This document shows, piece after piece, positions 39,672-52,691 of a DNA stretch of 64,000 nt. Below the pieces are notes generated by a model. The model saw only the letters and a list, made by a program, of their open reading frames with translations. It ran no database searches and had not been told where the DNA came from. The position numbers and the translations under genes were made by a program. Source of the DNA: Pseudoxanthomonas japonensis (lineage in GTDB: Bacteria > Pseudomonadota > Gammaproteobacteria > Xanthomonadales > Xanthomonadaceae); NCBI RefSeq assembly GCF_010093445.1, contig NZ_PDWW01000009.1, forward strand, positions 1 through 64,000. The letters run 5' to 3'. Each line of letters opens with the position of its first letter. Positions within the stretch are counted from its first letter, which is position 1.

Positions 39672-40025
39672 TCAGGTCCCCAGCAATTCCACGTCGAACT
39701 TCAGGGTGGCGTTGGGCGGGATGACGCCGCCGGCGCCGCGCGCGCCGTAGCCGAGGCTGGCGGGAATGATGAGGGTGCGCTGGCCGCCCACCTTCATGCC
39801 CTGCACGCCTTCGTCCCAGCCCTTGATGACCATGCCGCCGCCGAGGGGAAAAATGAAGGGTTCGTCGCGGTCCTTGCTGGAATCGAACTTGGCGCCCTGC
39901 GCGCCGTTCTCGTACAGCCAGCCGGTGTAGTGCACGGTGACGTTGCTGCCGGGCTTGGCCTCGATGCCGCTGCCGACGACGGTGTCTTCGAACTGCAGGC
40001 CGGAGGCGGTGGTGGTGAAGGGCAT
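39672..40025 (-). CDS. FKBP-type peptidyl-prolyl cis-trans isomerase
   Basis: 117 residues, a single FKBP domain. VTVHYTGWLYENGAQGAKFDSSKDRDEPFIFPLGGGMVIKGWDEGVQGMKVGGQRTLIIPASLGYGARGAGGVIPPNATLKFDVELL keeps nearly all active-site aromatics (Tyr, Phe, Trp, Tyr). No signal peptide, so it should act in the cytoplasm on prolyl bonds. The start MPFTTTASGLQFED is typical. Confidence 0.95.
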   Translation of the reverse strand: MPFTTTASGLQFEDTVVGSGIEAKPGSNVTVHYTGWLYENGAQGAKFDSSKDRDEPFIFPLGGGMVIKGWDEGVQGMKVGGQRTLIIPASLGYGARGAGGVIPPNATLKFDVELLGT

Positions 40026-40111
40026 GGGGTGTTCCTTGAGGATGAGGGATTCGTGGTGGGTAGTCTATCGCCCGTGCGGCAGGGTGCGCTGCGCTTGTCC
40101 GGGCGGCCGCG

Positions 40112-40495
40112 TTACGCGTCGCACTCGCCCACGCGCTTTCCGTCCTTGCGGACGTAGGTGGAATCCGAGCCCGTCTTGTCGCTATGGAGTTGCAGCACGT
40201 CGCGCGTGGCGGTGAAGGTCAGCGTGATGGGAATGGCGCGGCCGTTGGCATTGGCCAGCAGTTCGACACGCTGTTCGCGCACGCGGTAGACGGTCTCGAT
40301 GTTGCCCTTCTCGCGCAGCACCCAGCCGGTGCCATCCGGCTCGAAGCGCAACGTGTCCTTCGCGCTCTTGTCCGGGTCCTTGCAGAGCATCCAGTCGCCA
40401 ACCAGCCAGGCGTTGGGCGTAGCGGCGGGCACGGTGGCCATGGCAGGCATGGCGATCACGCCCAGCAGGGCGGCGGCGATGAGGGATCGCGGCAT
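40112..40495 (-). CDS. Exported small protein of unknown function
   Basis: 127 residues. Signal peptide MPRSLIAAALLGVIAMPAMA, then a beta-rich mature part (WLVGDWMLCKDPDKSAKDTLRFEPDGTGWVLRE...VELLANANGRAIPITLTF) with two cysteines. It resembles other small exported lipocalin-like proteins of this group. It is transcribed towards the FKBP gene. Confidence 0.75.
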   Translation of the reverse strand: MPRSLIAAALLGVIAMPAMATVPAATPNAWLVGDWMLCKDPDKSAKDTLRFEPDGTGWVLREKGNIETVYRVREQRVELLANANGRAIPITLTFTATRDVLQLHSDKTGSDSTYVRKDGKRVGECDA

Positions 40496-40584
40496 GGGAC
40501 AGTCCTTGTGGATGGTCCCGGCATGATCGGTTACAGGGCAGCAGGATGGGAAGCGCAGGACTTACGGCGACGGATGCCGTCCGC

Positions 40585-40612
40585 GTAGGGTGGGCCTTGG
40601 CCCACCGCGCGG
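40585..40612. repeat. GTGGGCCTTGGCCCAC palindrome
   Basis: CGTAGGGTGGGCCTTGGCCCACC. A copy of the hairpin seen at 38190. It marks the left border of the accessory region. Confidence 0.6.
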
Positions 40613-40699
40613 GCTAAGGTCCATGATCGCGGGATAGAGCCCGCGCGACCGGTCCGCTATATTCGAACGTGCTCGAAGGGGCATAGAACAGGGGGATAG

Positions 40700-41584
40700 G
40701 TGCTTCGCCACGACTTCGTCGCTGATCTGGAACGGATCGCTCCACATATCGGAACCACCCTGCACTGGCCGCGAGAGTCCGACGTCTTGTCGCATGACGG
40801 ACTCGCGGATCTCGGGAAAGCACTTGATGAAGCGCTTGTCTTGGTCCAACGCCAAGCGCGCAAGCTGCTGGATGCTCACTTGCTGGACGTTCCAGACAGT
40901 CCTCTTCTTGGCCGGATATCGCTGTTTCGCGCGATCGGCATGATCCGCCAGGAGACCATACATACGGGCACGCTGTCGTGGCTGATTGATCCCAGGCAGC
41001 CGCATGGCTTTGAGTCGGCGCTCTGCCAAGCCTTCGTTCGCGCGATCAATGTCTCCGGCGAACAGGATCCCGCCAGCTCCCTCAAAAGCCTGATCCTTGA
41101 CCCATCCTCTCGAGTCACGAACGTCGCATCCGAGTTCTGGTTATCAAGTGACTGCAGGATGGATGTCCTGATCGAAGGACATGCCAAGAACGGGACCCGC
41201 TGGGCAGTGGTGGTTGAAGCGAAGGTGGACGCGGAGGAGCAGAAAGATCAGCTCCTGAATTACGACCGCGCATTGGAACGTCGCGCAAGGCAGGGGTGGT
41301 CGGATGTCCAGGTCCTCCGTGTATTCCTCAGCGAAGACGGCCGATCCGGAAAGTCGTCTGCGCTTGGGTCCGCATGGGCACGAATGAGCTACCTGGACAT
41401 CGCGAGGGAGTTCCTGGCGACCTACCGCGGACTCGGACAAAGCGAGGGGCATGCGTTCCTGCGCATCTACCTGTCAGGGCTCCTGGAGGAGCTCTGCGGG
41501 ATCTCTTGCGGGGCGGACCTGATCGACCTGCTAGCAAAGAACAACGCCGTTGATATCGAGCGGCTACTGACGGAGCGCAAATGA
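40700..41584 (+). CDS. PD-(D/E)XK nuclease-superfamily protein (PDDEXK_4-like)
   Basis: 294 residues, GTG start supported by AGGGGG upstream. The N-terminal half contains HTGTLSWLIDPRQPHGFESALCQAF, typical of the PDDEXK_4-like group. The nuclease core is SSDCRMDVLIEG (Asp155) ... WAVVVEAKVDAEEQKDQLLNYDRAL with Glu173-x-Lys175 and the following Gln184/Tyr. These residues match PD-(D/E)XK. Its stop overlaps the start of the next gene as ATGA, so the two are coupled. Such stand-alone nucleases are frequent in phage-defence loci; the role here is inferred. Confidence 0.8.
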   Translation: MLRHDFVADLERIAPHIGTTLHWPRESDVLSHDGLADLGKALDEALVLVQRQARKLLDAHLLDVPDSPLLGRISLFRAIGMIRQETIHTGTLSWLIDPRQPHGFESALCQAFVRAINVSGEQDPASSLKSLILDPSSRVTNVASEFWLSSDCRMDVLIEGHAKNGTRWAVVVEAKVDAEEQKDQLLNYDRALERRARQGWSDVQVLRVFLSEDGRSGKSSALGSAWARMSYLDIAREFLATYRGLGQSEGHAFLRIYLSGLLEELCGISCGADLIDLLAKNNAVDIERLLTERK

Positions 41585-42219
41585 CCGATTCGATAGCCTT
41601 GGGCTTCTGGGCCAAACACTGCTGGGCGATGGAACTGCTGAACGTGGAGGAGGACGATGATCTTCCGGAAGAGCTGAAATCCATTCGTTCGAACGAACGA
41701 TTCGGAGACATGGTGAATGAGGTGATCACCTCCGCAGAGCGGGACGCGCTGCTTCTCCTTGGCGGCATCCAGCACGACATCGAGGCTGAACTCTGCCGGA
41801 AAGGAAGTCCGTTCAAAGTAATGCGGAAGCGATCCAGCGATCCATGGCAACTGAATCTGCATTTTCAGCCCCGCCGGGGAGGAAAGGATTCCTTCAAGGC
41901 AGAGGTTGGCGCGCGTATCTACGAGTCCAGCGAAAGGAACATGAAGCTGGCCGTCTGGATATGGGCCAAGGGCGGCAGAAGCGCTGAGAAGACGTTCACC
42001 GAAATCCTGGCCGGGACTATCGAAGCCTCCATGGACAAGAACAATGGCTGGGCGAGCGGCGTGGCTTTTCTCTTCAATGAGCCGCTGGCAAGTCCCATGT
42101 TCGCCGGCATGGCCGAGGGTTCGGTTGACCTGCTGAAGGTTCGTGGAGCAGCCCGCGAAGCCCTCGCCAGGCAGGACAACGACCGATTGCTACGTCTCGT
42201 CAGGGAGCTCAGGAACTGA
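41581..42219 (+). CDS. Protein of unknown function, partner of the PD-(D/E)XK protein
   Basis: 212 residues, soluble. ALGFWAKHCWAMELLNVEEDDDLPEEL, LLLLGGIQHDIEAELC and MKLAVWIWAKGGRSAEKTFTEILAGTI stand out. It overlaps the nuclease gene by four bases and is presumably translated with it. Its 3' end overlaps the convergent ankyrin-type gene by about 30 bp. No family recognised. Confidence 0.75.
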   Translation: MTDSIALGFWAKHCWAMELLNVEEDDDLPEELKSIRSNERFGDMVNEVITSAERDALLLLGGIQHDIEAELCRKGSPFKVMRKRSSDPWQLNLHFQPRRGGKDSFKAEVGARIYESSERNMKLAVWIWAKGGRSAEKTFTEILAGTIEASMDKNNGWASGVAFLFNEPLASPMFAGMAEGSVDLLKVRGAAREALARQDNDRLLRLVRELRN

Positions 42220-42486
42220 TTGCCTGCGCTCCCTCCTCGTTGCCCCAAGTAGCTCAAGAATCTCCGTTCGCCCCCATTTCTCCGCCAGTTCCAGGGGCGT
42301 GTGATAGCCCTCGTTGTCGAAGGTGCATGCGTCCGTCGGAGCTCCCTTTCCGAGTGCGGAACGGGCACCTTCGATGTCTCCGCGGCGAATCGCCAGGTTG
42401 AGCTCATCGACAGCCTCGGCAGCAAGCTTTGGTCGTCCAACGACTTCGTTCCGATTCTTTCTAAAGAAGTTGAACCAACGTTTCAT
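42190..42486 (-). CDS. Small ankyrin-repeat-like protein
   Basis: 98 residues. AVDELNLAIRRGDIEGARSALGKGAPTDACTFDNEGYHTPLELAEKWGRTEILELLGATRRERRQ contains roughly two ankyrin units (the TPLELAxxxGRTEILELL pattern). A basic N-terminus MKRWFNFFRKNRN may touch membranes or nucleic acid. The start is preceded by AGGAAAGATCGAT. Convergent overlap with the preceding plus-strand gene. Confidence 0.75.
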   Translation of the reverse strand: MKRWFNFFRKNRNEVVGRPKLAAEAVDELNLAIRRGDIEGARSALGKGAPTDACTFDNEGYHTPLELAEKWGRTEILELLGATRRERRQSVPELPDET

Positions 42487-42509
42487 ATCGATCTTTCCTG
42501 GTCGGCCAC

Positions 42510-43280
42510 TCAGCCAAGCAATGCCGTCCTGGCGATGCAATGGATGCTTCCGTCGTCCGCTTTGCTCACCCGGCGGCAGGTCTCCATGCGAGTCACCGCC
42601 GAGCGCGGGATGATGTCGGTCTTGTCGCCACGCAGCAGCACGCACATCTCGCTGCCGCATTGCATGACCAGCGCTGGCCGGGCGGATTCCGCTTCGGTGT
42701 ATCCCAGCACCCAGTTGCGTTCCAGCGTGGCGAGCTTGGACAGCGCGGCGCGCTCTTTCTCCGCATCATGCTTCGCTTTGGTCGAAGCAGGTTTTACGCC
42801 GAGATAGATCAGGCCGAAGGCGAACAGGAACAGCAGGAGGAAACCGAGCACACCCACCTGGAGATTCTCGAATCCGGCATCGACGGCATCGGCGAGCGCG
42901 CGATGTCGGGGTGCGACCTGCATTCGCCGATTCATCTCGACGAAGAACTTTCTGACTTTCCGGCCGATACCTGACAGGCGGGGAATGCCAAAGGTCCTGA
43001 TGCAGGCCACGATGAGAAGAGTCACGACGGACACGCCCGCGAACCACGCGACCCACGACGTGCGTCCGAGGATCGACAGGATGAGCACCAACGCGCCTTG
43101 GCGGATGTAATCCACGCTGGAATAGCCCAACAGGGCGTCGCTGATACCGAACTCGCCCCAGTAAGTATCCAGGTACGCCCATCCGGCGAAGTACAGCGCG
43201 GGCACGCCGATGACAGTGAGCTTGGCGGCCAGTTCGATGAGGTGTTGGGTCTTGGACCCGATGCTTGCCAGTGCAGCCAT
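42510..43280 (-). CDS. Membrane protein of unknown function
   Basis: 256 residues with three to four hydrophobic segments (LAAKLTVIGVPALYFAGWAYL; GALVLILSIL; WVAWFAGVSVVTLLIVACI; VGVLGFLLLFLFAFGLIYLG). The C-terminal soluble part, ERNWVLGYTEAESARPALVMQCGSEMCVLLRGDKTDIIPRSAVTRMETC, has several cysteines and the look of a small sensor domain. Lies just upstream of the ankyrin gene (23 bp) and may be its operon partner. No family recognised. Confidence 0.75.
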   Translation of the reverse strand: MAALASIGSKTQHLIELAAKLTVIGVPALYFAGWAYLDTYWGEFGISDALLGYSSVDYIRQGALVLILSILGRTSWVAWFAGVSVVTLLIVACIRTFGIPRLSGIGRKVRKFFVEMNRRMQVAPRHRALADAVDAGFENLQVGVLGFLLLFLFAFGLIYLGVKPASTKAKHDAEKERAALSKLATLERNWVLGYTEAESARPALVMQCGSEMCVLLRGDKTDIIPRSAVTRMETCRRVSKADDGSIHCIARTALLG

Positions 43281-43367
43281 CCCCGACGCTCCTTGTGGTT
43301 ATCCCCTGCCGCGAACTATGCCACCAGTGGCCAGCGGAGCACCGATGGAAATGGCACCACCCGGGAA

Positions 43368-43458
43368 CGTGGCCCGGGTAAGGCCAAAGGCTGCACCCGG
43401 GGCACGGACGGGTCACGTGGCAGGCGTCCCGGGTGCGCTGCGCTTAGCCGGGCTACGC
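43368..43458. repeat. R2 (REP-like) palindromic element
   Basis: CGTGGCCCGGGTAAGGCCAAAGG...CGGGTGCGCTGCGCTTAGCCGGGCTACGC, about 91 bp, same layout as the two copies around the RAYT but with more mismatches. Confidence 0.75.
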
Positions 43459-43460
43459 GT

Positions 43461-43862
43461 CTACGCGCGCTCGTCCGGCACCAGGGTGATGTTCGGGTGT
43501 GCGGCGATGATCTCCAGCACGATGTCGAAGTAGGTCTGTCCGCGGCCGGCGTCCAGGGCATCGAGTGCGCGTTGGAAGTGTGCGCTGTTGAAGCGTTCGG
43601 GCTGCGCCAGTTTGGCGAGCAGGTATTGCCGTGTGGTGTCGACGCCGAGTGCGTCGCGGCTGGCGGCGAAGTTGGTCCAGACGAGCGTTACCGGGGCAGC
43701 GCCATCGAGTGCGCCGTAGCCGCCGTAGAGCATGTCGTCGAGGGCATCCAGGCTGGGGCCGAGCGTCCAGTCGACGCCGGTCATGAAGACGCGGTTGATC
43801 TCGTCGTAGAAGGACGGGATGTCGCGGATGCGGGCGCCGTCGAGGGTGAGGGTGTGGGGCAT
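43461..43862 (-). CDS. Barstar-like (ribonuclease inhibitor) protein
   Basis: 133 residues. HTLTLDGARIRDIPSFYDEINRVFMTGVDWTLGPSLDALDDMLYGGYGAL matches the barstar family, including the Asp-rich LDALDDML helix that inserts into barnase-type active sites. A longer C-terminal part (RFNSAHFQRALDALDAGRGQTYFDIVLEII) extends it beyond the 90-residue classical barstar. No barnase-type gene was found near it, so its target is unknown. Confidence 0.85.
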   Translation of the reverse strand: MPHTLTLDGARIRDIPSFYDEINRVFMTGVDWTLGPSLDALDDMLYGGYGALDGAAPVTLVWTNFAASRDALGVDTTRQYLLAKLAQPERFNSAHFQRALDALDAGRGQTYFDIVLEIIAAHPNITLVPDERA

Positions 43863-43913
43863 GGGGGTCGTTCCCGAGGCGAGGAGTTCACGCGCCCACC
43901 CCACCCTACCGCA

Positions 43914-44303
43914 TCAGTTGCCCAACGCCTTGAACAGCAGCAGCCAGAAGAACCAGCCGATCATCATGAAGAACAGGCCTTCTCCAGCGGCCTTCTTCCT
44001 GCCGGCCATCAGGTAGCCAGCCGCCAGGAAGATGACGATGCCGGGCAGCAGGACGCACAGCACCTTGAGCACGAGCGGCAGGGTGTCGGTCGGCTTGGCG
44101 CCGGGGATGGGCGGCGGTGAGCGTCCCGGCGGAGTGTCGAAGCGCGCGTCCTGGATGCCGCGCCCGATGAGTTCGTGCCGCGCCAGGTCGATCGCTTCCT
44201 CGCCGTACTCGTCCGTCGTCGCCAGCGCGATGCGCATCAGGCGATCGGTTTCGTACTCGCGGTACTGCTGTTTGACGGCGTCCGCATCGAAGTGGGTGGA
44301 CAT
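43914..44303 (-). CDS. Small membrane protein of unknown function
   Basis: 129 residues. A helical charged N-terminal half (AVKQQYREYETDRLMRIALATTDEYGEEAIDLARHELIGRGI) resembles the DUF2007-neighbour type helical domain. Two C-terminal helices follow (LVLKVLCVLLPGIVIFLAAGYLMAG and GLFFMMIGWFFWLLLFKALG). Function unknown. Confidence 0.75.
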   Translation of the reverse strand: MSTHFDADAVKQQYREYETDRLMRIALATTDEYGEEAIDLARHELIGRGIQDARFDTPPGRSPPPIPGAKPTDTLPLVLKVLCVLLPGIVIFLAAGYLMAGRKKAAGEGLFFMMIGWFFWLLLFKALGN

Positions 44304-44367
44304 GGACGCTCACTCCTTGATCGTTGTCTTGGGGCCTAATCGACTCACTGGGGTATGCCGAAATGTA

Positions 44368-45192
44368 CTATGACCCCTGTTCCCACAAACTTGGCTTCAG
44401 CTTCTTTCCTTTGCTCCGAGTGTTCTTCACGTGCACAGGATCAACCATCTTATCGGCGGGAAGATCAATCAGAACATTGACCAAACTAGCAATCGCCTGA
44501 TCTGACAGCATGAAGTCCTTTGGAATACCACTAGATAAACCCGCGCGATTCTCAAGGATAGCCGCCTCCAGCGCACGGGTGAAGTCAGCCGTCGAGGGGC
44601 GCTTACTGCGCGTGGCACCTTCTGTAAGAGGATCCGATGCCACAACCAGCGCCCTACGCGCATCTTCCGCGATAGTTCGGACGATTGCATCCAACGCAGG
44701 CCAGTACTTCATATCGAACCTGCCGCCGAGCCGCTCTAGAGGTTCTTTCAGATAGTACGTATAGCGTCCGTTATCTGCGCTCGCCTCATCGATCACTTGC
44801 ACTATGTCGTAGTGCGTATCACTGTAGAAACCAGAGCTGTTGTGAAGTTCGTCCCGCTGCACCAGGAGGCCTGCTAGTTCATAAGCGACCTTTGAGATCG
44901 CCAAGTTTAGTGCGACGAGCTCATCACGGTCCGAGCGATCTTTAGCTATCCGATCCGGCGACCAAAAAGCTCCCGTGGAAAGGAAGCAAGCCATTAGAAC
45001 TCGCTTTGGCGTCTCCCCGCGCAGCTTGGCATGCATCTCTTCATACACTTGAGCCAGCTCACCACTCCTACCAAGTAGGCGATATGCAACCGCACTCTCG
45101 CTGGGAAGACAGTTATGCTCATCGTTGTAGCGTATATGGTCCCGCAGGCATTCCTCGAAAAAAACTTGGACACTGCGTGAGGTCTCACTCAT
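44368..45192 (-). CDS. Protein of unknown function in low-G+C segment
   Basis: 274 residues, soluble, helical. The start MSETSRSVQVFFEECLRDHIRYNDEHNCLPSESAVAYRLLG is preceded by a good context, and the C-terminus is basic (HVKNTRSKGKKLKPSLWEQG). No family recognised. Codon and base use are clearly poorer in G+C than in the surrounding core, which suggests transfer. It is divergent from the HEPN-like gene at 45400 with about 207 bp between them, so the two may be functionally linked. Confidence 0.7.
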   Translation of the reverse strand: MSETSRSVQVFFEECLRDHIRYNDEHNCLPSESAVAYRLLGRSGELAQVYEEMHAKLRGETPKRVLMACFLSTGAFWSPDRIAKDRSDRDELVALNLAISKVAYELAGLLVQRDELHNSSGFYSDTHYDIVQVIDEASADNGRYTYYLKEPLERLGGRFDMKYWPALDAIVRTIAEDARRALVVASDPLTEGATRSKRPSTADFTRALEAAILENRAGLSSGIPKDFMLSDQAIASLVNVLIDLPADKMVDPVHVKNTRSKGKKLKPSLWEQGS

Positions 45193-45399
45193 AGGGTTTT
45201 CTTTCGCCGAAACAGGATTGACGGAAATCTTACGGACAACTCCATGGCGATCTGGCATCCGAAACTGCGAATTCTAAAGTCGATTCGGACACCCGCGAAT
45301 CTGATTCAATCAGACCGTTCGGTCCATCCTTACCCTCTACGCGTCCCACCTGTCGGTCAAGCCACCTTAATTAAGCTAGCCCCCCCCTTGGAGGCCAAC

Positions 45400-46128
45400 A
45401 TGCCCAGATCAACACAGTTTCCCCGCCCAGTCTTCGATGAGACTGGCGTCTATACGATCAACGAGGCGGGTACTTACGAGGTCATTTCTCCATCAGTTCA
45501 GCGATATCACGAACTAGTCTTCTCTATTCGCGACTTACATTCGGCCCACGAGATGATGGAACAATGCTGCCGTAACGACCTAGACGACTTGCATCCCTTG
45601 CTAGAGCAAGGCTTATGGGTGGGCGCTGTGATCCAGTACAGCAAACCGTTCAAGGCTAACCACGCGCGTCGAACCTTTGATGCCGGAAACTTGGTGCGCA
45701 CTCAAGCAACTGAGAGCATGCGCGACTTCCATCACTACCTGATCACTCTTCGCGACAAGATGTTTGCTCACGACGATGCCCTAGGCGAGTGCAAACAAGT
45801 CGCGATCGGATTGCCATATAAACGCCCCAGGCATCCCTTCGAGATAGGGATAGAGCCAACGAATCCCCGTGTCATCTCGCTAGGCGGAGATATCGCGAGA
45901 GATGCAGAACCCCATTTCAGGGCAATGCTCCAACTTTTTGAACAACAGCGAAATCAGATCAGAGAAGAAACTATTGGAGAACTATTCCGAACAAATCTTA
46001 ATGAAGTGACGCTAGTCGGACCAGCGAGGAAGACTGCTCTAGAAGTTGGACGCGACGATGTTGCGGCCCGCTGGCCAAGAAAGGATGGACAGTCTGCCAA
46101 GCAGTCTGGGAGCAAGAACAGCAGGTAG
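45400..46128 (+). CDS. HEPN-like protein (candidate), function unknown
   Basis: 242 residues, ATG preceded by GGAGG six bases upstream. The middle is helical (VQRYHELVFSIRDLHSAHEMMEQCC) and contains HHYLITLRDKMFAHDDALG, with Arg118-Asp...His124, an RDx4H motif as in HEPN nucleases. The preceding long helix and the spacing agree with a HEPN fold. The C-terminus is Lys/Ser rich. HEPN proteins act as RNases in toxin-antitoxin and anti-phage systems; this assignment is inference from the motif alone. Low G+C like its neighbours. Confidence 0.65.
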   Translation: MPRSTQFPRPVFDETGVYTINEAGTYEVISPSVQRYHELVFSIRDLHSAHEMMEQCCRNDLDDLHPLLEQGLWVGAVIQYSKPFKANHARRTFDAGNLVRTQATESMRDFHHYLITLRDKMFAHDDALGECKQVAIGLPYKRPRHPFEIGIEPTNPRVISLGGDIARDAEPHFRAMLQLFEQQRNQIREETIGELFRTNLNEVTLVGPARKTALEVGRDDVAARWPRKDGQSAKQSGSKNSR

Positions 46129-46225
46129 ACGCCAACAACATAGGGCTGACTAAATTTCAGAACGCCGCCACTAGATGGGGATGCACTCCCCCCTGCTCTC
46201 GGATCAACGCAACCTATCGCCGACA

Positions 46226-46570
46226 TCAATCGGCCCTTAGCCCCCAACCATAAGCACCGCGCGCAGAGGAGAACCCGTAATTTTTCTTGTGAAAAGCCTT
46301 CATCGCAGCAACGGCCTGCCCCAGCATCAGAACGACATCACTGTTCTGAGGAAGATCATCCTCATCCAGAAGATCGAGATAACTACGAGATACCTCACCA
46401 TCCAGAATCTCAAAAACAGACTCGAGCAATCTGTTGACAATCTGGACTTTTTTCTTGTTCAACGCTCCGTCGGGCTTCTTCTTCGCTGCATCTTGAAATT
46501 CGCGAAACATTGCCTCCAACAACGGCATCAGTTCGTCGTGACGAGCACCGCGAGCTTTAACTGAAGTCAT
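46226..46570 (-). CDS. Small protein, paralog of the next gene
   Basis: 114 residues, helical. KKKPDGALNKKKVQIVNRLLESVFEIL and DLPQNSDVVLMLGQAVAAM align with the neighbouring protein (46578-46943). Starts seven bases after its stop, with AGGA five bases before the ATG. It is the third gene of the minus-strand unit. No family recognised. Confidence 0.8.
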   Translation of the reverse strand: MTSVKARGARHDELMPLLEAMFREFQDAAKKKPDGALNKKKVQIVNRLLESVFEILDGEVSRSYLDLLDEDDLPQNSDVVLMLGQAVAAMKAFHKKNYGFSSARGAYGWGLRAD

Positions 46571-46577
46571 AGAAATC

Positions 46578-46943
46578 CTACTTCCTCCGTAGCTTGCGTG
46601 GAGCCAACGTGCGGATGCTCCGCCCTTCTACTCGCCAGTACCAGTTGCCCATCTCTTGGTAGATGTTATCGGCCCTGAGCTTCTCCATACACTCAATGTA
46701 TTGAGACACGATCAAGGCAACATCGCTATTCGTTGGGAGATCATCCGAGGAAAACTCTGAGAACTCCTGAAAAGGTCGATACTTGTCTTCAAGTAAATCA
46801 TTCGCCCTTCTGATTGTGGAGTTTATAAGTCCAATCTTGAAGGAATTAACAGCATCGTTCGGCGACTTCTTCACCAGAACAGAAATCTCTTGATACACAC
46901 CATCAAGCTGCCCACTAACCTTCTCGAACTCGTCAACATCCAT
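46578..46943 (-). CDS. Small protein, paralog of the following gene
   Basis: 121 residues. KSPNDAVNSFKIGLINSTIRRANDLLEDK and DLPTNSDVALIVSQYIECM mirror the blocks of the 46226-46570 protein, so the two arose by duplication and then diverged. The ATG at 46943 has GAGGTGA at five bases; alternatives at 46949 and 46982 have no proper site. It follows the nuclease-like gene with a 10-bp gap. No family recognised. Confidence 0.8.
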   Translation of the reverse strand: MDVDEFEKVSGQLDGVYQEISVLVKKSPNDAVNSFKIGLINSTIRRANDLLEDKYRPFQEFSEFSSDDLPTNSDVALIVSQYIECMEKLRADNIYQEMGNWYWRVEGRSIRTLAPRKLRRK

Positions 46944-46953
46944 ATTCATCACC

Positions 46954-48330
46954 TCATGATGGACATGCTCGTCGAAAATCAATGTACTTCTTCTTCAGGA
47001 CATCTATTGGCTGCCTTTGCTTACTCTCGAAGACATTTACCATCAACTCCAGGTCCTCATCAGTCAGAGAGATGATGCACCTTCGCTGGCCGGACCACAG
47101 ATCAATAGTGTTCTTGAACATGGCTTTAGACAACGGATTTCTAGTCACGAAGACACCGAAAGCTCCGAACTCATTCAGCAGATAGCGATTCAACTGATTT
47201 ATGTGATCACGCTCTATGGACCGAACGTTTTTCAACTCCATGACAACCTGGCGACTCGAGTAGTCTTGAAGTATCTCACCAAGAAAGTCCACGGATCTAT
47301 TGTTGTAGAAAACGAGATCCCGAATGGTAGAACCGCCTTCAGAGCGACTTTGAGTAGCCGCGAAATCAAGGTGTGGATACAACAGAGACGACAATAACTG
47401 CGTAGCCGCCGCTTCGTATTTTTTGTCAGCTTTATCCCCTACGCCAGTGGGGAGCTTCTGGATCTCAGCAAACTTCCTCTTAGCTGAGATCACCGGAATT
47501 TGCTTGAAGAGCGGGTCGTTCCTGCAATCGTCGGCCGATCGCTCTTTTGCGGCAATGTATCCCGCGACCGCATCATAATTTGATCGATTGTACGTAAGAA
47601 CGCTTACGCGACCGTCATCGCCACACTGGTTGACTACATCATCTTTCGGGCAGGAGCTGGCGAAGTAGTCATCGAAATTTATCCAAGGGACAAAGCGAAG
47701 CCACCTCTTAGGGACAAGCAAAATTGGCTGGTTCGTTTCTGGATTTACAGGAAGATCAACTGATACATCAGCGGAGAATTCGTACTTCCTGTAATCGTAA
47801 AGCGAAGGAAGGACCACTTTGACCAATGGAATGCCCAAGCCAAGACATTGATCTACCGTGTAGTCGATTAGAAATGACTTGAGGAAATTGCATGCGATAT
47901 CGCTAATGCGGTCACGCGAGATGCCGTCAACGTATAACTGAATTTCTTCGAAGTGGTTGAATCCATGGCGACCATACTCTGGAACATGCCGAAACAAGTT
48001 CAGCGTACTTGTCGCCACCCGACTGCCTATCCGCTTGCCCTTCTTGGTCGCGGACACGCCCAATCCAACCTCATCACACTCACTTGCGAGAATTAAGCTA
48101 CTAACCGCCTCGCTCTCCCTGCCTTTTTGAAGCAACCAGTTCAGCCGATTGAACGAATTTACTAGCGAGGTATGGAGGGCCTGATCTTGCAACGATGGCG
48201 ATCGCCACAGCAAGAACGGATCCAAATAGAGCGGTATGTCTTCCTGCAGAAGCGGTATTGCGAAGTCCAAGTCTGACTGCGCCAGTGAGACTCCGTAGTG
48301 ATCCGTAAAGCGGGGGCGGACTAGCGCCAT
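46954..48330 (-). CDS. Putative PD-(D/E)XK nuclease-type protein of an accessory operon
   Basis: 458 residues. The N-terminal region (RPRFTDHYGVSLAQSDLDFAIPLLQEDIPLYLDPFLLW) and a central block without known domains are followed by a restriction-endonuclease-like core: STIRDLVFYNN (Asp338), RQVVMELKNV (Glu365-x-Lys367) and HINQLNRYL (Gln379). Followed closely by two small paralogous genes, it is probably the effector of that unit. It begins 10 bp after nrdJb, but base use is much poorer in G+C. No known system name can be given. Confidence 0.75.
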   Translation of the reverse strand: MALVRPRFTDHYGVSLAQSDLDFAIPLLQEDIPLYLDPFLLWRSPSLQDQALHTSLVNSFNRLNWLLQKGRESEAVSSLILASECDEVGLGVSATKKGKRIGSRVATSTLNLFRHVPEYGRHGFNHFEEIQLYVDGISRDRISDIACNFLKSFLIDYTVDQCLGLGIPLVKVVLPSLYDYRKYEFSADVSVDLPVNPETNQPILLVPKRWLRFVPWINFDDYFASSCPKDDVVNQCGDDGRVSVLTYNRSNYDAVAGYIAAKERSADDCRNDPLFKQIPVISAKRKFAEIQKLPTGVGDKADKKYEAAATQLLSSLLYPHLDFAATQSRSEGGSTIRDLVFYNNRSVDFLGEILQDYSSRQVVMELKNVRSIERDHINQLNRYLLNEFGAFGVFVTRNPLSKAMFKNTIDLWSGQRRCIISLTDEDLELMVNVFESKQRQPIDVLKKKYIDFRRACPS

Positions 48331-48340
48331 AACCTCAAGG

Positions 48341-49180
48341 TCACCCGCACTTCGAATAACCACAGTTCAAGCACGTCGCGCACCCGTCCATGATGACGAG
48401 GGCCTTGGTGCTGCACTTGTGGCAGAGCGTCGCGGAGGGCGGGAAGCTGGCGCCATCGCCGGTCACGGCGATGTCTTCGGAGGAGCCGGGGGACTTCACG
48501 GCAGAGGCGCCCTCATCCGCCCTCCGGGCACCTTCTCCCGCGGGTGCGGGAGAAGGAACGACGCTTACGTCAGAGTTTTTTTTTGCGCGGTCTTCGTACT
48601 GCTTGCGCTTCTCGGCCAGGATGGCGCGCTGGTGCGCGCTCATTTCCGGATCGTGGATCAGGCCGATCGACTTCATGTGTTCTTCCACGATGGCGCCCAA
48701 CTCCGCCACCAGCGACGGCATGTACACGCCACCGGCCTTGAAGTAGCCACCGCGCGGATCGAACACGGCCTTCATCTCGTCCACCAGGAACGTCACGTCG
48801 CCGCCCTTGCGGAACACCGCCGACATGATGCGCGTCAGCGCCACGATCCACTGGAAATGCTCCATGGACTTGCTGTTGACGAAGATCTCGAACGGACGGC
48901 GCAGCTCGTGCTCCGTGCCCGCGTTCAACACGATGTCGTTGATGGTCACGTACATGGCGTGCTCCACCAGCGGCGACTTGATCTTGTAGGTGCTGCCGAT
49001 CAGGACTTCCGGGCGCTCGATGCGCTCGTGCATCTGGATGATGTTGTCCTGCGGGGTTTCCTTTTCCACCGTCTCGCGCGGCACCGACGCCGTCGGAATG
49101 GCAGCGGCGGCTTCGCGCGCCTTGTCTTCCGGGGTGAGCACGCTGTAGCCCTTGATTTTCTTGTCGATCTTGACGGCCAT
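48341..49180 (-). CDS. nrdJb: NrdJb-like small subunit/C-terminal part of class II ribonucleotide reductase (TSCPD and zinc-ribbon)
   Basis: 279 residues. The core EVLIGSTYKIKSPLVEHAMYVTINDIVLNAGTEHELRRPFEIFVNSKSMEHFQWIVALTRIMSAVFRKGGDVTFLVDEM is the TSCPD-type domain that follows the catalytic barrel in unsplit NrdJ/NrdZ proteins. The C-terminus LCHKCSTKALVIMDGCATCLNCGYSKCG is the redox-active cysteine-rich zinc ribbon. Residues about 208-225 (PSPAPAGEGARRADEGA) are encoded by an R1 repeat in frame, in the linker between the two domains. Encoded downstream of nrdJa. Confidence 0.85.
   Translation of the reverse strand: MAVKIDKKIKGYSVLTPEDKAREAAAAIPTASVPRETVEKETPQDNIIQMHERIERPEVLIGSTYKIKSPLVEHAMYVTINDIVLNAGTEHELRRPFEIFVNSKSMEHFQWIVALTRIMSAVFRKGGDVTFLVDEMKAVFDPRGGYFKAGGVYMPSLVAELGAIVEEHMKSIGLIHDPEMSAHQRAILAEKRKQYEDRAKKNSDVSVVPSPAPAGEGARRADEGASAVKSPGSSEDIAVTGDGASFPPSATLCHKCSTKALVIMDGCATCLNCGYSKCG
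48508..48558. repeat. R1 repeat inside nrdJb coding sequence
   Basis: GCCCTCATCCGCCCTCCGGGC followed by ACCTTCTCCCGC/GCGGGAGAAGG matches the intergenic R1 element found at 4028-4078 and 50220-50500. It leaves the reading frame intact. Confidence 0.8.
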
Positions 49181-49301: not shown

Positions 49302-49919
49302 TTACTTACGGGCCGCTTTTTTGGTGGCTTTCTTCGGGGCTGCCTTGCGCACGGCCTTCTTGGCCGCTTTCTTCGGAGCGGCCTTCTTCGCCGCCTTCTT
49401 CACGGGCGCCTTGCGGGCGACCTTCTTCACTGCCTTCTTGGCGACCTTCTTCACTGCCTTCTTGGCGGCCTTCTTGACCGGCGCCTTCTTGGCGGCGGCC
49501 TTGCGGGCGACCTTCTTGACCGCCTTCTTGGCCGCGGTCTTCTTGGTCGCTGCCTTCTTGGTGGTCTTCTTCGCTGCCTTCTTCGCCGTTTTCTTGGCGG
49601 CCTTCTTGCCGGTGACCTTCTTCTGCAGGCTGGCGGCTTCGGCCTTGGCGGCGGTGCTGGCGGCGGCCAGCTTCTTCTTGGCCTTGGCGACGGTCTTCTT
49701 CACCGCCTTGGTGGCCTTGTCGGTGCGCTTGGCCACGGCCTTCTTCGCCTTGGCGATGTCGGCGGTCACCGTCTTGCGCGCCTTCTTGGCCGCCTTCTTG
49801 GCCTTGGCGACCGTCTCGCTGGCGGTGGAAGCGACCGCTTCCCCGATCCCCGCCACTGTTTCCTTCACGCTTTCGGCTGCGCCGGAAAGCGTCGCCGTGA
49901 CACCATTACCGTTGCTCAT
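49302..49919 (-). CDS. Histone H1-like, Ala/Lys-rich DNA-binding protein
   Basis: 205 residues. A mildly acidic N-terminus (MSNGNGVTATLSGAAESVKETVAGIGEAV) is followed by many KKAAKK/KKAVKK and KKAPVKKAAKK repeats to the end, the composition of AlgP/Hc1-type bacterial histone-H1-like proteins. It should bind nucleic acid non-specifically and may influence nucleoid structure or transcription. It sits between nrdJa and nrdJb on the same strand. Repeat number is likely to vary among strains. Confidence 0.9.
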   Translation of the reverse strand: MSNGNGVTATLSGAAESVKETVAGIGEAVASTASETVAKAKKAAKKARKTVTADIAKAKKAVAKRTDKATKAVKKTVAKAKKKLAAASTAAKAEAASLQKKVTGKKAAKKTAKKAAKKTTKKAATKKTAAKKAVKKVARKAAAKKAPVKKAAKKAVKKVAKKAVKKVARKAPVKKAAKKAAPKKAAKKAVRKAAPKKATKKAARK

Positions 49920-50540
49920 GTTGCCCTCCTTGTGGGCGAGGTTGGTTTGACGCTGCCGATGCTATACCCGATGGCGCGGGGTGGAACGGTGAAGCGGGTG
50001 AATCGGTGGTTCAACTTCCTGGAGCTGCCCCTTCCCCCGCGTGCGGGGGAAGGTTGGGATGGGGGCACTGTTGGCTGAGAGCAAAAGCAACTCGCTGCGC
50101 TCGCCTCCCCTCTCCCGCCCCTTCGGGGCACCCTCTCCCGCGAGGGGAGAGGGGTACAGCCAGTGCTCTTTCCTTCCCTTCTCCCCGCAAGCGGGGAGAA
50201 GGTGGCAGGAGGCCGGATGAGGGGCCGCTGTTCGCGAGAAGTAAAAGCAACTCGCTGCGCTCGCTCCCCCTCACCTGCCCTCCGGGCATCCTCTCCCCGC
50301 AGGCGGGGAGAGGCGTAAAGCCGGTCCCTCTTTCTTTCCCTTCTCCCCGCAAGCGGGGAGAATGTGGCCGGAGGCCGGATGAGGGGCCGCTGTTCGCGAG
50401 AAGCAAAAGCAACTCGCTACGCTCGCTCCCCCTCACCTGCCCTCCGGGCATCCTCTCCCCGCAGGCGGGGAGAGGCGTAAAGCCGGTCCCTCTTTCTTTT
50501 CCTCTCCCCTGCAATGGGGGAGAGGAACAAAGCGCGTTCC
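49920..50540. repeat. R1 repeat array including two tandem copies of a 162-bp unit
   Basis: No gene. 50027-50066 and 50098-50160 hold diverged R1 units. From about 50178 to 50500 a composite unit, CTCCCCGCAAGCGGGGAG ... GGCCGGATGAGGGGCCGCTG ... GCAACTCGCTGCGCTCGC ... CATCCTCTCCCCGCAGGCGGGGAG, occurs twice with a period of 162 bp (50181 and 50343) and few differences. The last hairpin (CTCTCCCCTGCAATGGGGGAGAG) directly follows the nrdJa stop. Confidence 0.8.
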
Positions 50541-52691
50541 TCAGAACTTGCCGTAATACCCTTCCTTCAACGCGTCGAACAGGTTGGCGGCGGTGTGCAT
50601 TTCTCCGTCGTACTCGATCTGCTCGTTGCCCTTCACCTCGATGACGTTGCCGTCTTCCAGCTCGAAGCGGTAGGTGGTGTTCTCCAGGTCGGCTTCCTTC
50701 ACCAGCACGCCCTGGAAGGCGGCCGGGTTGAAGCGGAACGTGGTGCAGCCCTTCAGGCCCTGCTGGTGGGCGTAGCGGTAGATGTCCTTGAACTGCTCGT
50801 ACGGGTAGTCCGTGGGCACGTTGGCGGTCTTGGAGATGGAGCTGTCCACCCACTTCTGCGCGGCGGCCTGCACGTCGACGTGCTCCTTGGGGGAGATGTC
50901 GTCGGCGGCGATGAAGTACTCCGGCAGTTTGGCGTCCGGGTCGTCGGAGAACGGCATGGCCTTGCCGTTGACCAGCTCGCGGTAGGCCAGCAGCTCGTAG
51001 GAATAGACGTCGACCTTTTCCTTGGACTTCTTGCCTTCGCGGATCACGTTGCGGCTGTAGTGGTGCGCGAACGAGGGCTCGATGCCGTTGGAGGCGTTGT
51101 TGGCCAGCGACAGGCTGATGGTGCCGGTCGGGGCGATCGAGCTGTGGTGGGTGAAGCGGCTGCCGACTTCGGCCAGCTCATCGACCAGCTCCGGCGCCAC
51201 GGTGGCCACGCGCTGCATGTAGCGGCTGTACTTGGCGTGCAGCACCTTGCCGGGGATCTCCTGGCCGACCTTCCAGCCGTCGGTCGCCATTTCCGGGCGC
51301 TGGCGCAGCATGGCGGCGGTGACGGCGAAGCGCTCTTCCATGATCGGGGCGGCGCCCTTCTCCTTGGCCAGCGCCAGGCCCATTTCCCAGCCGGCCACGG
51401 CCATCTCGCGGGCGATCGCCTCGGTGAACTCGCAGGACGCGGCGCTGCCGTACTTGTGCTTGAGCATGGTCAGCGTGCTGCCCAGGCCCAGGAAGCCCAT
51501 GCCGTGGCGGCGCTTGCGCAGGATTTCCTGGCGCTGCTGTTCCAGCGGCAGGCCGTTCACTTCGACCACGTTGTCGAGCATGCGGGTGAACACGCGCACG
51601 ACTTCCTTGTATTCCTCCCAGTCGAAGCGCGCCTGGTCGGTGAAGGGGTCGCGCACGAAGGTGGTCAGGTTGACCGAGCCCAGCAGGCAGGCGCCGTACG
51701 GCGGCAGCGGCTGCTCGCCGCACGGGTTGGTCGCGCGGATCGTCTCGCACCACCAGTTGTTGTTCATCTCGTTGACGCGGTCGATCAGGATGAAGCCCGG
51801 CTCGGCGTAGTCGTACGTCGAGACCATGATCATGTCCCACAGGTGGCGGGCACGGATGTGGCCGTAGATCTTGCAGGCCACCAGGCCGTCTTCGCGGACG
51901 ATGTAGTTCTTGTGGGTGGGCCACTCGCGCCAGACGACCTGGGCGGCGTCCTCGACGTCGATGTCGCCCTTCTCCTTGACGTTCACCGGGAACACCAGCG
52001 GCCAGTCGGCGTCGGTGTCGACCGCTTCCATGAAGCCGTCGGTGATCAGCAGCGACAGGTTGAACTGGCGCAGGCGGCCGTCTTCGCGCTTGGCGCGGAT
52101 GAAGTCCTTGACGTCCGGGTGGGAGATTTCGAACGTGCCCATCTGCGCGCCGCGGCGGCCGCCGGCGGAGGACACGGTGAAGCACATCTTGTCGTAGATA
52201 TCCATGAAGGACATCGGGCCGGAGGTGTACGCGCCGGCGCCAGCGACGAAGGCGCCCTTCGGGCGCAGCGTGCTGAATTCGTAGCCGATGCCGCAGCCGG
52301 CCTTCAGGGTCAGGCCGGCTTCGTGGACCTTGTCCAGGATGCCGTCCATCGAGTCCTCGATGGTGCCGGAGACGGTGCAGTTGATGGTGCTGGTGGCCGG
52401 CTTGTGCTGCTGGGCGCCGGCGTTGGAGGTGATGCGGCCGGCCGGGATGGCGCCGCGGCGCAGCGCCCACACGAAGCGCTCGTACCAGTAGGCGCGCTTC
52501 TCGGGGGTGGCTTCCGCGTCGGCCAGGGCGCGGGCCACGCGCTGGTAGGTGCCGTCGATGTCGGCGTCGAGAGCCTCGCCCTGCTTGGTCTTCAGGCGGT
52601 ACTTCTTGTCCCAGATGTCCTGGGACGCCGGCTGCATGGGGACCAGGGTGGGCTGTTCCGTCTTGATCGCCTCGAGGCGCACCGTACTCAT
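50541..52691 (-). CDS. nrdJa: Class II (adenosylcobalamin-dependent) ribonucleotide reductase, catalytic subunit NrdJa
   Basis: 716 residues. The effector and active-site segments are visible: INCTVSGTIEDSMDGILDKV with the active-site cysteine region, LKAGCGIGYEFSTLRP, SSAGGRRGAQMGTF, NPCGEQPLPPYGACLLGSVNLT with the radical cysteine motif, and SIAPTGTISLSLANNASNGIEP. It converts ribonucleotides to deoxyribonucleotides with an adenosylcobalamin radical. The C-terminal redox cysteines are encoded separately in nrdJb. GGAGAA lies 12 bases before the ATG. Upstream is a pair of NrdR-box-like sites. Confidence 0.92.
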   Translation of the reverse strand: MSTVRLEAIKTEQPTLVPMQPASQDIWDKKYRLKTKQGEALDADIDGTYQRVARALADAEATPEKRAYWYERFVWALRRGAIPAGRITSNAGAQQHKPATSTINCTVSGTIEDSMDGILDKVHEAGLTLKAGCGIGYEFSTLRPKGAFVAGAGAYTSGPMSFMDIYDKMCFTVSSAGGRRGAQMGTFEISHPDVKDFIRAKREDGRLRQFNLSLLITDGFMEAVDTDADWPLVFPVNVKEKGDIDVEDAAQVVWREWPTHKNYIVREDGLVACKIYGHIRARHLWDMIMVSTYDYAEPGFILIDRVNEMNNNWWCETIRATNPCGEQPLPPYGACLLGSVNLTTFVRDPFTDQARFDWEEYKEVVRVFTRMLDNVVEVNGLPLEQQRQEILRKRRHGMGFLGLGSTLTMLKHKYGSAASCEFTEAIAREMAVAGWEMGLALAKEKGAAPIMEERFAVTAAMLRQRPEMATDGWKVGQEIPGKVLHAKYSRYMQRVATVAPELVDELAEVGSRFTHHSSIAPTGTISLSLANNASNGIEPSFAHHYSRNVIREGKKSKEKVDVYSYELLAYRELVNGKAMPFSDDPDAKLPEYFIAADDISPKEHVDVQAAAQKWVDSSISKTANVPTDYPYEQFKDIYRYAHQQGLKGCTTFRFNPAAFQGVLVKEADLENTTYRFELEDGNVIEVKGNEQIEYDGEMHTAANLFDALKEGYYGKF

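What the first reader, a model, noticed from the sequence alone, without database searches (positions are those of the whole stretch)
46226..48330. Compact three-gene unit: PD-(D/E)XK-type protein followed by two small paralogous proteins
On the minus strand a 458-residue protein with a nuclease core (Asp338, Glu365-x-Lys367, Gln379) is followed after 10 bp by a 121-residue protein and after 7 bp by a 114-residue protein. The two small proteins share DLP[QT]NSDV[VA]L and the Lys...Asn-helix block, so they are duplicates. Their base use is about half G+C, and they sit directly after nrdJb. Nuclease plus small accessory proteins in a transferred block is typical of defence modules, but I cannot match this combination to a named system.
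Basis: partly seen in the sequence, partly recalled or inferred. Interest (0 to 1): 0.72.

Follow-up and report, generated by a model that had tools for sequence, protein, structure and literature searches.

The report
Nuclease trio, candidate phage-defence system PDC-M36
Three adjacent bacterial genes, a probable DNA-cutting enzyme and two small helper proteins that arose by duplication, form a transferable set already listed as a candidate anti-virus defence system, although what it does has not been shown.

Summary
Window 46226-48330 (minus strand) holds a 458-aa PD-(D/E)XK-type protein (A) and two small paralogues (B1, 121 aa; B2, 114 aa). PADLOC-DB already lists the unit as candidate system PDC-M36 (A: E 1.6e-235; B1 and B2: PDC-M36B). 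Asp338, Glu365, Lys367 and Gln379 are invariant in 20 aligned sequences; the model has the nuclease core order, with restriction-enzyme-fold PDB matches at weak E-values. All 16 other distinct loci found by searching with A at 52-66% identity and complete enough to judge have two B genes directly downstream. B1 and B2 are two old clades. Distant A relatives (19-26% where measured) show no B in 23 loci. Of 10 trio loci whose selected neighbours were scanned, 5 have defence-family neighbours. In this genome the trio lies in a variable site after nrdJb that, in other genomes of the genus, holds Drt3b, SIR2-HerA, DarG and PDC genes. Most likely it is a triggered nuclease effector with B1/B2 as obligate sensor/regulators; that mechanism is inferred, and no paper naming PDC-M36 was found. 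New member of a known, uncharacterised kind.

The parts
46954..48330 (-). Protein A, 458 aa: N-terminal conserved domain of unknown function plus C-terminal PD-(D/E)XK nuclease domain (PDC-M36A)
   Evidence: PADLOC PDLC04597 E 1.6e-235 over 1-458; AlphaFold model; conservation
47641..48330 (-). N-terminal domain of A (about residues 1-230); D31, D37, P38, E84, G91, G98, D140, D144, T158, P194, P207 invariant in 24 rows that reach down to 21% identity
   Evidence: alignment A3; phrog_27295, best stretch 7-223, E 9.5e-24
47146..47439 (-). Nuclease core of A (residues 298-395): D338, E365, K367, Q379
   Evidence: invariant in 20 rows; model elements H298-317, E329-331, E334-336, E339-342, H348-357, E361-366, H374-384, E391-395; residues 322-336 mostly below pLDDT 50
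46960..47043 (-). C-terminal stretch of A (residues 430-457) whose conserved positions are all specific to relatives that carry B genes; one candidate docking site for B
   Evidence: 12 trio rows against 10 distant rows of A1; other trio-specific positions are spread over A, also around 241-300; docking is inference
46578..46943 (-). B1, 121 aa (PDC-M36B): three-helix bundle plus beta hairpin
   Evidence: PADLOC PDLC04599 E 9.9e-55; model mean pLDDT 95.8
46226..46570 (-). B2, 114 aa (PDC-M36B), paralogue of B1
   Evidence: PADLOC PDLC04600 E 4.3e-41; BLASTP with B1 E 3e-8
48341..49180 (-). nrdJb, TSCPD-domain protein of B12-dependent ribonucleotide reductase; conserved edge of the variable region, 10 bp upstream of A
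   Evidence: Pfam TSCPD; homology to 12 same-genus genomes ends at its stop codon or within 6 bp of it
40026..48340 (.). Variable region between nrdJb and an FKBP-type isomerase gene (39672-40025; name given from its sequence, not from a search), with other accessory genes in same-genus genomes
   Evidence: blastn against 12 same-genus loci; FKBP-type gene at 90-97% identity in 7 of the 12 loci, in L069 as an edge fragment

Best explanation
The trio is an intact, horizontally acquired copy of the PADLOC candidate defence system PDC-M36. Protein A is the effector: a PD-(D/E)XK nuclease (Asp338, Glu365, Lys367, probably with Gln379) behind a conserved N-terminal domain. B1 and B2 are obligate small partners that form a homo- or hetero-oligomer, bind A and hold or release the nuclease in response to a phage trigger; A then cuts DNA, either the phage's or, as abortive infection, the cell's. 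Shown here: gene order, nuclease motif, fold class (model), constant pairing with B in close relatives, the B1/B2 split, defence-family neighbours at some loci. Inferred: nuclease activity, B-A binding, the trigger, the DNA cut and anti-phage function. I put about 0.8 on a defence role and about 0.5 on this division of labour.
For: PADLOC match. Catalytic set invariant in 20 rows; PDB matches include RPB5 (top), Nt.BspD6I, MspJI, EcoT38I, LlaBIII, FokI, Can2 (that RPB5's jaw domain has this fold is recalled). Two B genes downstream at 16 of 16 distinct loci found by searching with A and complete enough, gaps -4 to 61 bp; the one locus found by searching with B (L048) has A. Distances of A, B1 and B2 are correlated (Mantel r 0.58-0.60, p 0.0002). 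B2 diverges fastest (mean identity A 0.58, B1 0.45, B2 0.37), as might be expected of a sensor. Neighbours: Kiwa KwaA-KwaB (L004), type I restriction parts and PDC-S08 (L005), type II restriction-modification (L036), PDC-S05 (L003), NsnA-like (L001). In same-genus genomes the window's site holds Drt3b, SIR2-HerA, DarG, PDC-S06, -S20, -S33, -S42, -S49. No ATPase or methyltransferase match among the three proteins.
Against: No experiment. Distant A relatives lack B in 23 of 23 loci, so B is not needed by every member of the A superfamily. L006 has two B1-type proteins, so a B1-B2 heteromer is not strictly required. The A model is of medium confidence, with residues 322-336 mostly below pLDDT 50, and the best Foldseek E-value is 0.0027. 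PADLOC's naming is itself a prediction by neighbourhood, so defence neighbours are not fully independent support. No defence family among the neighbours scanned at L002, L006, L008, L033, L035. The correlated distances could come from shared ancestry of the loci alone. Two other PADLOC candidates (PDC-S04, PDC-M63AB) showed no activity when tested (PMC12409345, passages).
Confidence: 0.5

Rival explanations
1. Modification-dependent (type IV-like) restriction: A directly recognises modified or otherwise foreign DNA through its N-terminal domain and cuts it; B1 and B2 are structural or DNA-loading subunits.
For: No methyltransferase in the unit; fold matches include MspJI, a modification-dependent enzyme (recalled), and a nicking enzyme; the N-terminal domain is conserved across the whole superfamily.
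Against: MspJI ranks 20th with probability 0.20; no known DNA-reader domain was found in A; B proteins are mostly acidic, pI 4.5-6.8 in 34 of 36.
Confidence: 0.22
2. Toxin-antitoxin-like unit: A is a self-toxic nuclease held inactive by B1/B2 as antitoxins, with plasmid or island maintenance as the main benefit.
For: Compact operon of a nuclease and small proteins; also on plasmids (L028, L029) and viral contigs (L032, L033, L035-L037).
Against: The effector gene comes first and there are two non-identical partners; distant A proteins occur without B; defence-family neighbours at several loci.
Confidence: 0.15
3. DNA repair or nucleotide-stress function linked to its expression partners (nrdJb here, umuC-type genes on two plasmids).
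For: 10 bp downstream of nrdJb in the window; downstream of umuD/umuC-type genes in L028 and of a DUF4113 protein in L029 (that DUF4113 occurs in UmuC proteins is recalled).
Against: Rare and patchy: PDC-M36B in 2 of 398 phylum genomes, its own included; no other close A in 297 family genomes; different neighbours elsewhere; the nrdJb site takes unrelated genes in other genomes.
Confidence: 0.08

Closest known systems
PDC-M36 (PADLOC-DB 2.0.0, phage defence candidate)
   Same: Both protein families match over nearly full length; two PDC-M36B models correspond to B1 and B2
   Different: No difference found. PADLOC lists both small proteins under one name, whereas they form two separate clades. 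The preprint behind the PDC names (Payne 2024, doi 10.1101/2024.01.29.577857) was seen only as a reference in PMC12988326
PD-(D/E)XK restriction enzymes and nickases (Nt.BspD6I, MspJI, EcoT38I, FokI)
   Same: Nuclease core order and D...E-x-K motif
   Different: No sequence match in the PDB searches; different N-terminal domain; no methyltransferase in the unit; two small partners
Stand-alone relatives of A (unnamed; weaker PDC-M36A matches, 19-26% identity where measured)
   Same: Same N-terminal domain with invariant acidic residues and, in the ten rows of A1, the E-x-K pair
   Different: No B genes in 23 of 23 loci; the C-terminal stretch of trio members is shorter or absent
Bacterial proteasome activator Bpa (fold of B only)
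   Same: Helical bundle; ranks 1-6 in the PDB search, TM 0.49-0.61
   Different: E 0.19-0.49, 9-13% identity; B1 also has a beta hairpin; no proteasome link; may be only a common bundle shape

Membership tests
PDC-M36 | PDC-M36A protein, full length | tested here: met
   E 1.6e-235, residues 1-458 to profile 1-457 of 457
PDC-M36 | PDC-M36B protein adjacent | tested here: met
   B1 E 9.9e-55, B2 E 4.3e-41; gaps 10 and 7 bp. PADLOC's own gene-order rule was not seen
PDC-M36 | anti-phage activity | not testable with these tools
   needs an experiment; no paper naming PDC-M36 was found in the library, whose supplements were not searched
PD-(D/E)XK superfamily | conserved D ... (D/E)-x-K catalytic set | tested here: met
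   D338, E365, K367 invariant in 20 rows; E365 and K367 in 22 rows
PD-(D/E)XK superfamily | alpha-beta-beta-beta-alpha-beta core fold | tested here: met
   element order in the model and PDB matches; residues 322-336 low confidence, best E 0.0027
PD-(D/E)XK superfamily | match to a curated family model above its cut-off | tested here: not met
   PDDEXK_3 15.2 bits against cut-off 22; low sequence similarity within the superfamily is recalled, so this is not taken as defining
Type I / type II restriction-modification | methyltransferase in the unit | tested here: not met
   no methyltransferase match among the three proteins
Toxin-antitoxin system | effector toxic alone, neutralised by the small partner | not testable with these tools
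   needs an expression experiment

The most novel reading that the evidence does not exclude
An ATP-independent defence mechanism in which two anciently split, Bpa-like helical-bundle paralogues assemble into a (hetero)oligomer that senses infection and gates a PD-(D/E)XK nuclease whose conserved acidic N-terminal domain is a second, undescribed ligand-binding or catalytic module; the same effector domain, used with and without gate proteins, would define a large unrecognised family of defence nucleases.
Probability: 0.2. Interest if true: 0.7.

Novelty: new member of a known kind. Interest (0 to 1): 0.38.

Why it matters
PDC-M36 is a catalogue entry for which I found no published experiment. 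The survey turns it into a testable unit: named catalytic residues, candidate docking stretches in A, two separable partner clades, and a natural exception (L006). It also shows that the effector belongs to a wider family of proteins that occur without B, a few of them next to restriction systems, and that the 3' end of nrdJb is a recurrent site of accessory and defence genes in this genus.

Tried and rejected
Pfam, NCBIfam and PHROGs gave no usable name for any of the three proteins. PDB sequence searches gave no credible relative of A or B; the best was E 0.052 for B, the molecule DHP1. The viral structure library gave only weak matches, RPB5 and restriction endonucleases among them, best E 0.054. 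Searching viral contigs with A alone found nothing; the alignment did. Two Klebsiella phage records match 39% of A at 25.5%, no other phage record matches. No match in E. coli genomes to the DNA of the Proteus copy (DNA only, so distant copies would be missed). I looked for a direct repeat of the nrdJb 3' end farther downstream: longest exact repeats 8-12 bases in the 11 of 13 loci for which the script gave a result (none for L069 and L071), so no att-like site is shown. No promoter-like site in 45900-48700, where shuffles give 2.0; the region before nrdJa was not scanned. The pooled PADLOC and Pfam scans of 90 hotspot proteins cannot be assigned to genomes, so I counted only the 20 proteins scanned singly.

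L037's B1 frame is short (105 aa).

Full report
Observation. Their G+C is 0.47-0.49 against 0.67 for the window, and A starts 10 bp after the stop codon of nrdJb. B1 and B2 align at BLASTP E 3e-8, 28% over 82 residues.

Identity. PADLOC-DB names them: A is PDC-M36A (E 1.6e-235), B1 and B2 are PDC-M36B under two models. No paper in the library names PDC-M36 (supplements not searched). The PDC names come from a preprint (Payne 2024) that I saw only in the reference list of PMC12988326 (passages seen); [quoted passage not shown] Passages of PMC12409345 report that PDC-S04 and PDC-M63AB, tested in their native host, gave no evidence of defence. I read no paper whole.

Nuclease. In alignment A5 (20 rows, 22-66% identity to A), Asp338, Glu365, Lys367 and Gln379 are invariant. 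In A1 (22 rows, 19-66%) Glu365 and Lys367 are invariant, Asp338 and Gln379 nearly so. In A3, with four more rows whose C-terminal half misaligns, only Asp338 of the four is listed, as nearly invariant. The AlphaFold model of A (mean pLDDT 81.1, pTM 0.78; the other four models 66-76) has the expected order of helices and strands, with Glu365 on strand 361-366; residues 322-336 are mostly below pLDDT 50. Foldseek's best PDB matches are RPB5 of RNA polymerases (E 0.0027 at best), then Nt.BspD6I, MspJI, EcoT38I, LlaBIII, FokI and Can2; other proteins stand among the lower ranks, and none is below E 1e-3. Pfam's PDDEXK_3 is below its cut-off. I take the fold class as well supported by motif and model together, and the activity as inferred.

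The N-terminal domain. Of the 13 columns invariant in A3, 11 lie in residues 31-207, five of them acidic (D31, D37, E84, D140, D144). The C-terminal misalignment in A3 exaggerates this contrast: in A5, 19 of 34 invariant columns lie in residues 18-222 and 15 beyond. The domain matches phrog_27295 (unknown function) and no Pfam family. It could bind a ligand or metal; I had no model coordinates, so I could not test whether these residues cluster.

The trio as a unit. Close relatives of A (52-66% identity) came from genome contigs, plasmids and viral contigs. Of those, 16 distinct loci are complete enough to judge, and all 16 have two B genes directly downstream on the same strand (by profile). 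A 17th, L048, was found by searching with B and has A. With the window that makes 18. Set aside: L009, L030, L034 and record H2 (see Tried and rejected). Source names include Chloroflexi, Acidobacteria, Cyanobacteria (Leptolyngbya), Proteus, Nitrosovibrio, Methylobacterium, Pseudodesulfovibrio and Lachnospiraceae; several are metagenome bins, whose labels can be wrong. In a tree of 36 B proteins, B1 and B2 fall on two sides with 100/100 support, with one exception: the second B of L006 is of B1 type. Pairwise distances of A, B1 and B2 are correlated (Mantel r 0.58, 0.60, 0.59, p 0.0002 each), although shared ancestry of the loci alone would give this. B2 is the least conserved, L006 included. 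More distant relatives at 23 loci (L012-L022, L031, L038-L047, L074) have no B: none by single-sequence search in 22 of them, and none by a B profile even at E 1 in all 23, with longer stretches (L075-L084) held for ten; the same profile found two B frames in 17 of 17 trio loci.

Distribution. A family sample had a close A in 1 of 297 genomes (its own) and weaker matches in 11 others. PDC-M36B was found in 2 of 398 phylum genomes, its own included. The second, G593, has the trio between genes that look like housekeeping ones by eye.

Context. I picked neighbours by eye, so these counts are not a random sample. PADLOC scans covered 7 non-window trio loci (L001, L003, L004, L005, L006, L008, L036) and Pfam scans 3 more (L002, L033, L035). 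Five of the 10 have defence-family matches: NsnA-like (L001, E 1.2e-66), PDC-S05 (L003), Kiwa KwaA and KwaB (L004), type I specificity and restriction subunits plus PDC-S08 (L005), type II restriction enzyme and methyltransferase (L036). The other five have none among the proteins scanned, although L008 carries an ArdC and a resolvase gene and L033 an integrase gene; L003 also has an integrase arm domain. Of 7 distant-A loci with one or two proteins scanned each, 3 have restriction or TIR proteins in the stretch (L076, L080, L084).

Site. I fetched 12 of the other same-genus genomes with an nrdJb match (35 of 38 genomes match, the own genome included). Homology to the window ends at the nrdJb stop codon or within 6 bp of it in all 12. 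It resumes at 40071-40080 in six (L062-L065, L070, L073), at about 40045 at the edge of L069's stretch, at 38837-38874 in L066 and L067, and not within the stretch in L068, L071 and L072; single genes inside the interval are shared by a few (for example 40112-40495 and 42510-43280). In all 13 genomes, the window included, the first open reading frame of 100 aa or more after nrdJb runs in the same direction and starts within about 110 bp of its stop, some start codons being uncertain. I scanned 20 chosen proteins from 8 of these loci: 6 of 8 have PADLOC matches at E 1e-10 or better, namely PDC-S06 (L062), PDC-S20 and PDC-S33 (L063), Drt3b (L064), SIR2 and HerA (L065), DarG, PDC-S20 and PDC-S42 (L067), PDC-S33 and PDC-S49 (L070); none among the two proteins each from L066 and L073. 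So the site recurrently takes defence genes, and its cargo may be read through from nrdJ. No att-like repeat and no promoter-like site near the trio were found; read-through is inference.

B. The B1 model is confident (pLDDT 95.8): three helices and a beta hairpin. The six best PDB matches are all bacterial proteasome activator Bpa, at E 0.19-0.49 and TM 0.49-0.61. Bpa forms rings (recalled); this makes a B ring a lead, no more.

Mechanism. The unit has a nuclease, no ATPase or methyltransferase match, and two co-inherited small proteins. The most economical reading is a nuclease that is held or armed by B1/B2 and released by a phage signal. The C-terminal stretch of A (430-457) has conserved positions that are all specific to B-carrying members and is one candidate docking site; trio-specific positions also occur elsewhere, with about as many per 20 residues in several other parts of A. 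Type IV-like restriction and a toxin-antitoxin arrangement are live rivals.

Verdict. Real, intact, and a further member of a catalogued candidate system whose function I found untested. Interest is moderate.

Noticed in passing
window 40026-48340 and L062-L073: The interval after nrdJb is variable in this genus; the first sizeable reading frame after nrdJb runs in the same direction in 13 of 13 genomes examined, and Drt3b, SIR2-HerA, DarG and PDC genes occur there in 6 of 8 loci scanned.
   Followed up: partly
window 43461-43904: Barstar-family protein (Pfam E 2.8e-9) inside the variable region; no partner ribonuclease was looked for.
   Followed up: no
window 49302-49919: 205-aa lysine- and alanine-rich, histone H1-like protein between the two nrdJ genes (likeness judged by eye).
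   Followed up: no
window 50006-50644: Repeated stretch between the two nrdJ genes: an open frame carries the same peptide block more than once, and blastn hits overlap there.
   Followed up: no
L028 4163-5846 and L029 4928-5959: On two unrelated plasmids the trio follows UmuD/UmuC-type genes (L028) or a DUF4113 protein (L029), so it may share damage-induced expression.
   Followed up: no
L006 9804-10205: The second small gene is of B1 type, the only one of 18 loci without a B2-type protein.
   Followed up: partly
L076 7140-10818 and L080 3613-8631: Distant relatives of A without B lie beside a type II restriction enzyme and a type IIG enzyme, so the wider A superfamily may be defence-linked.
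   Followed up: partly
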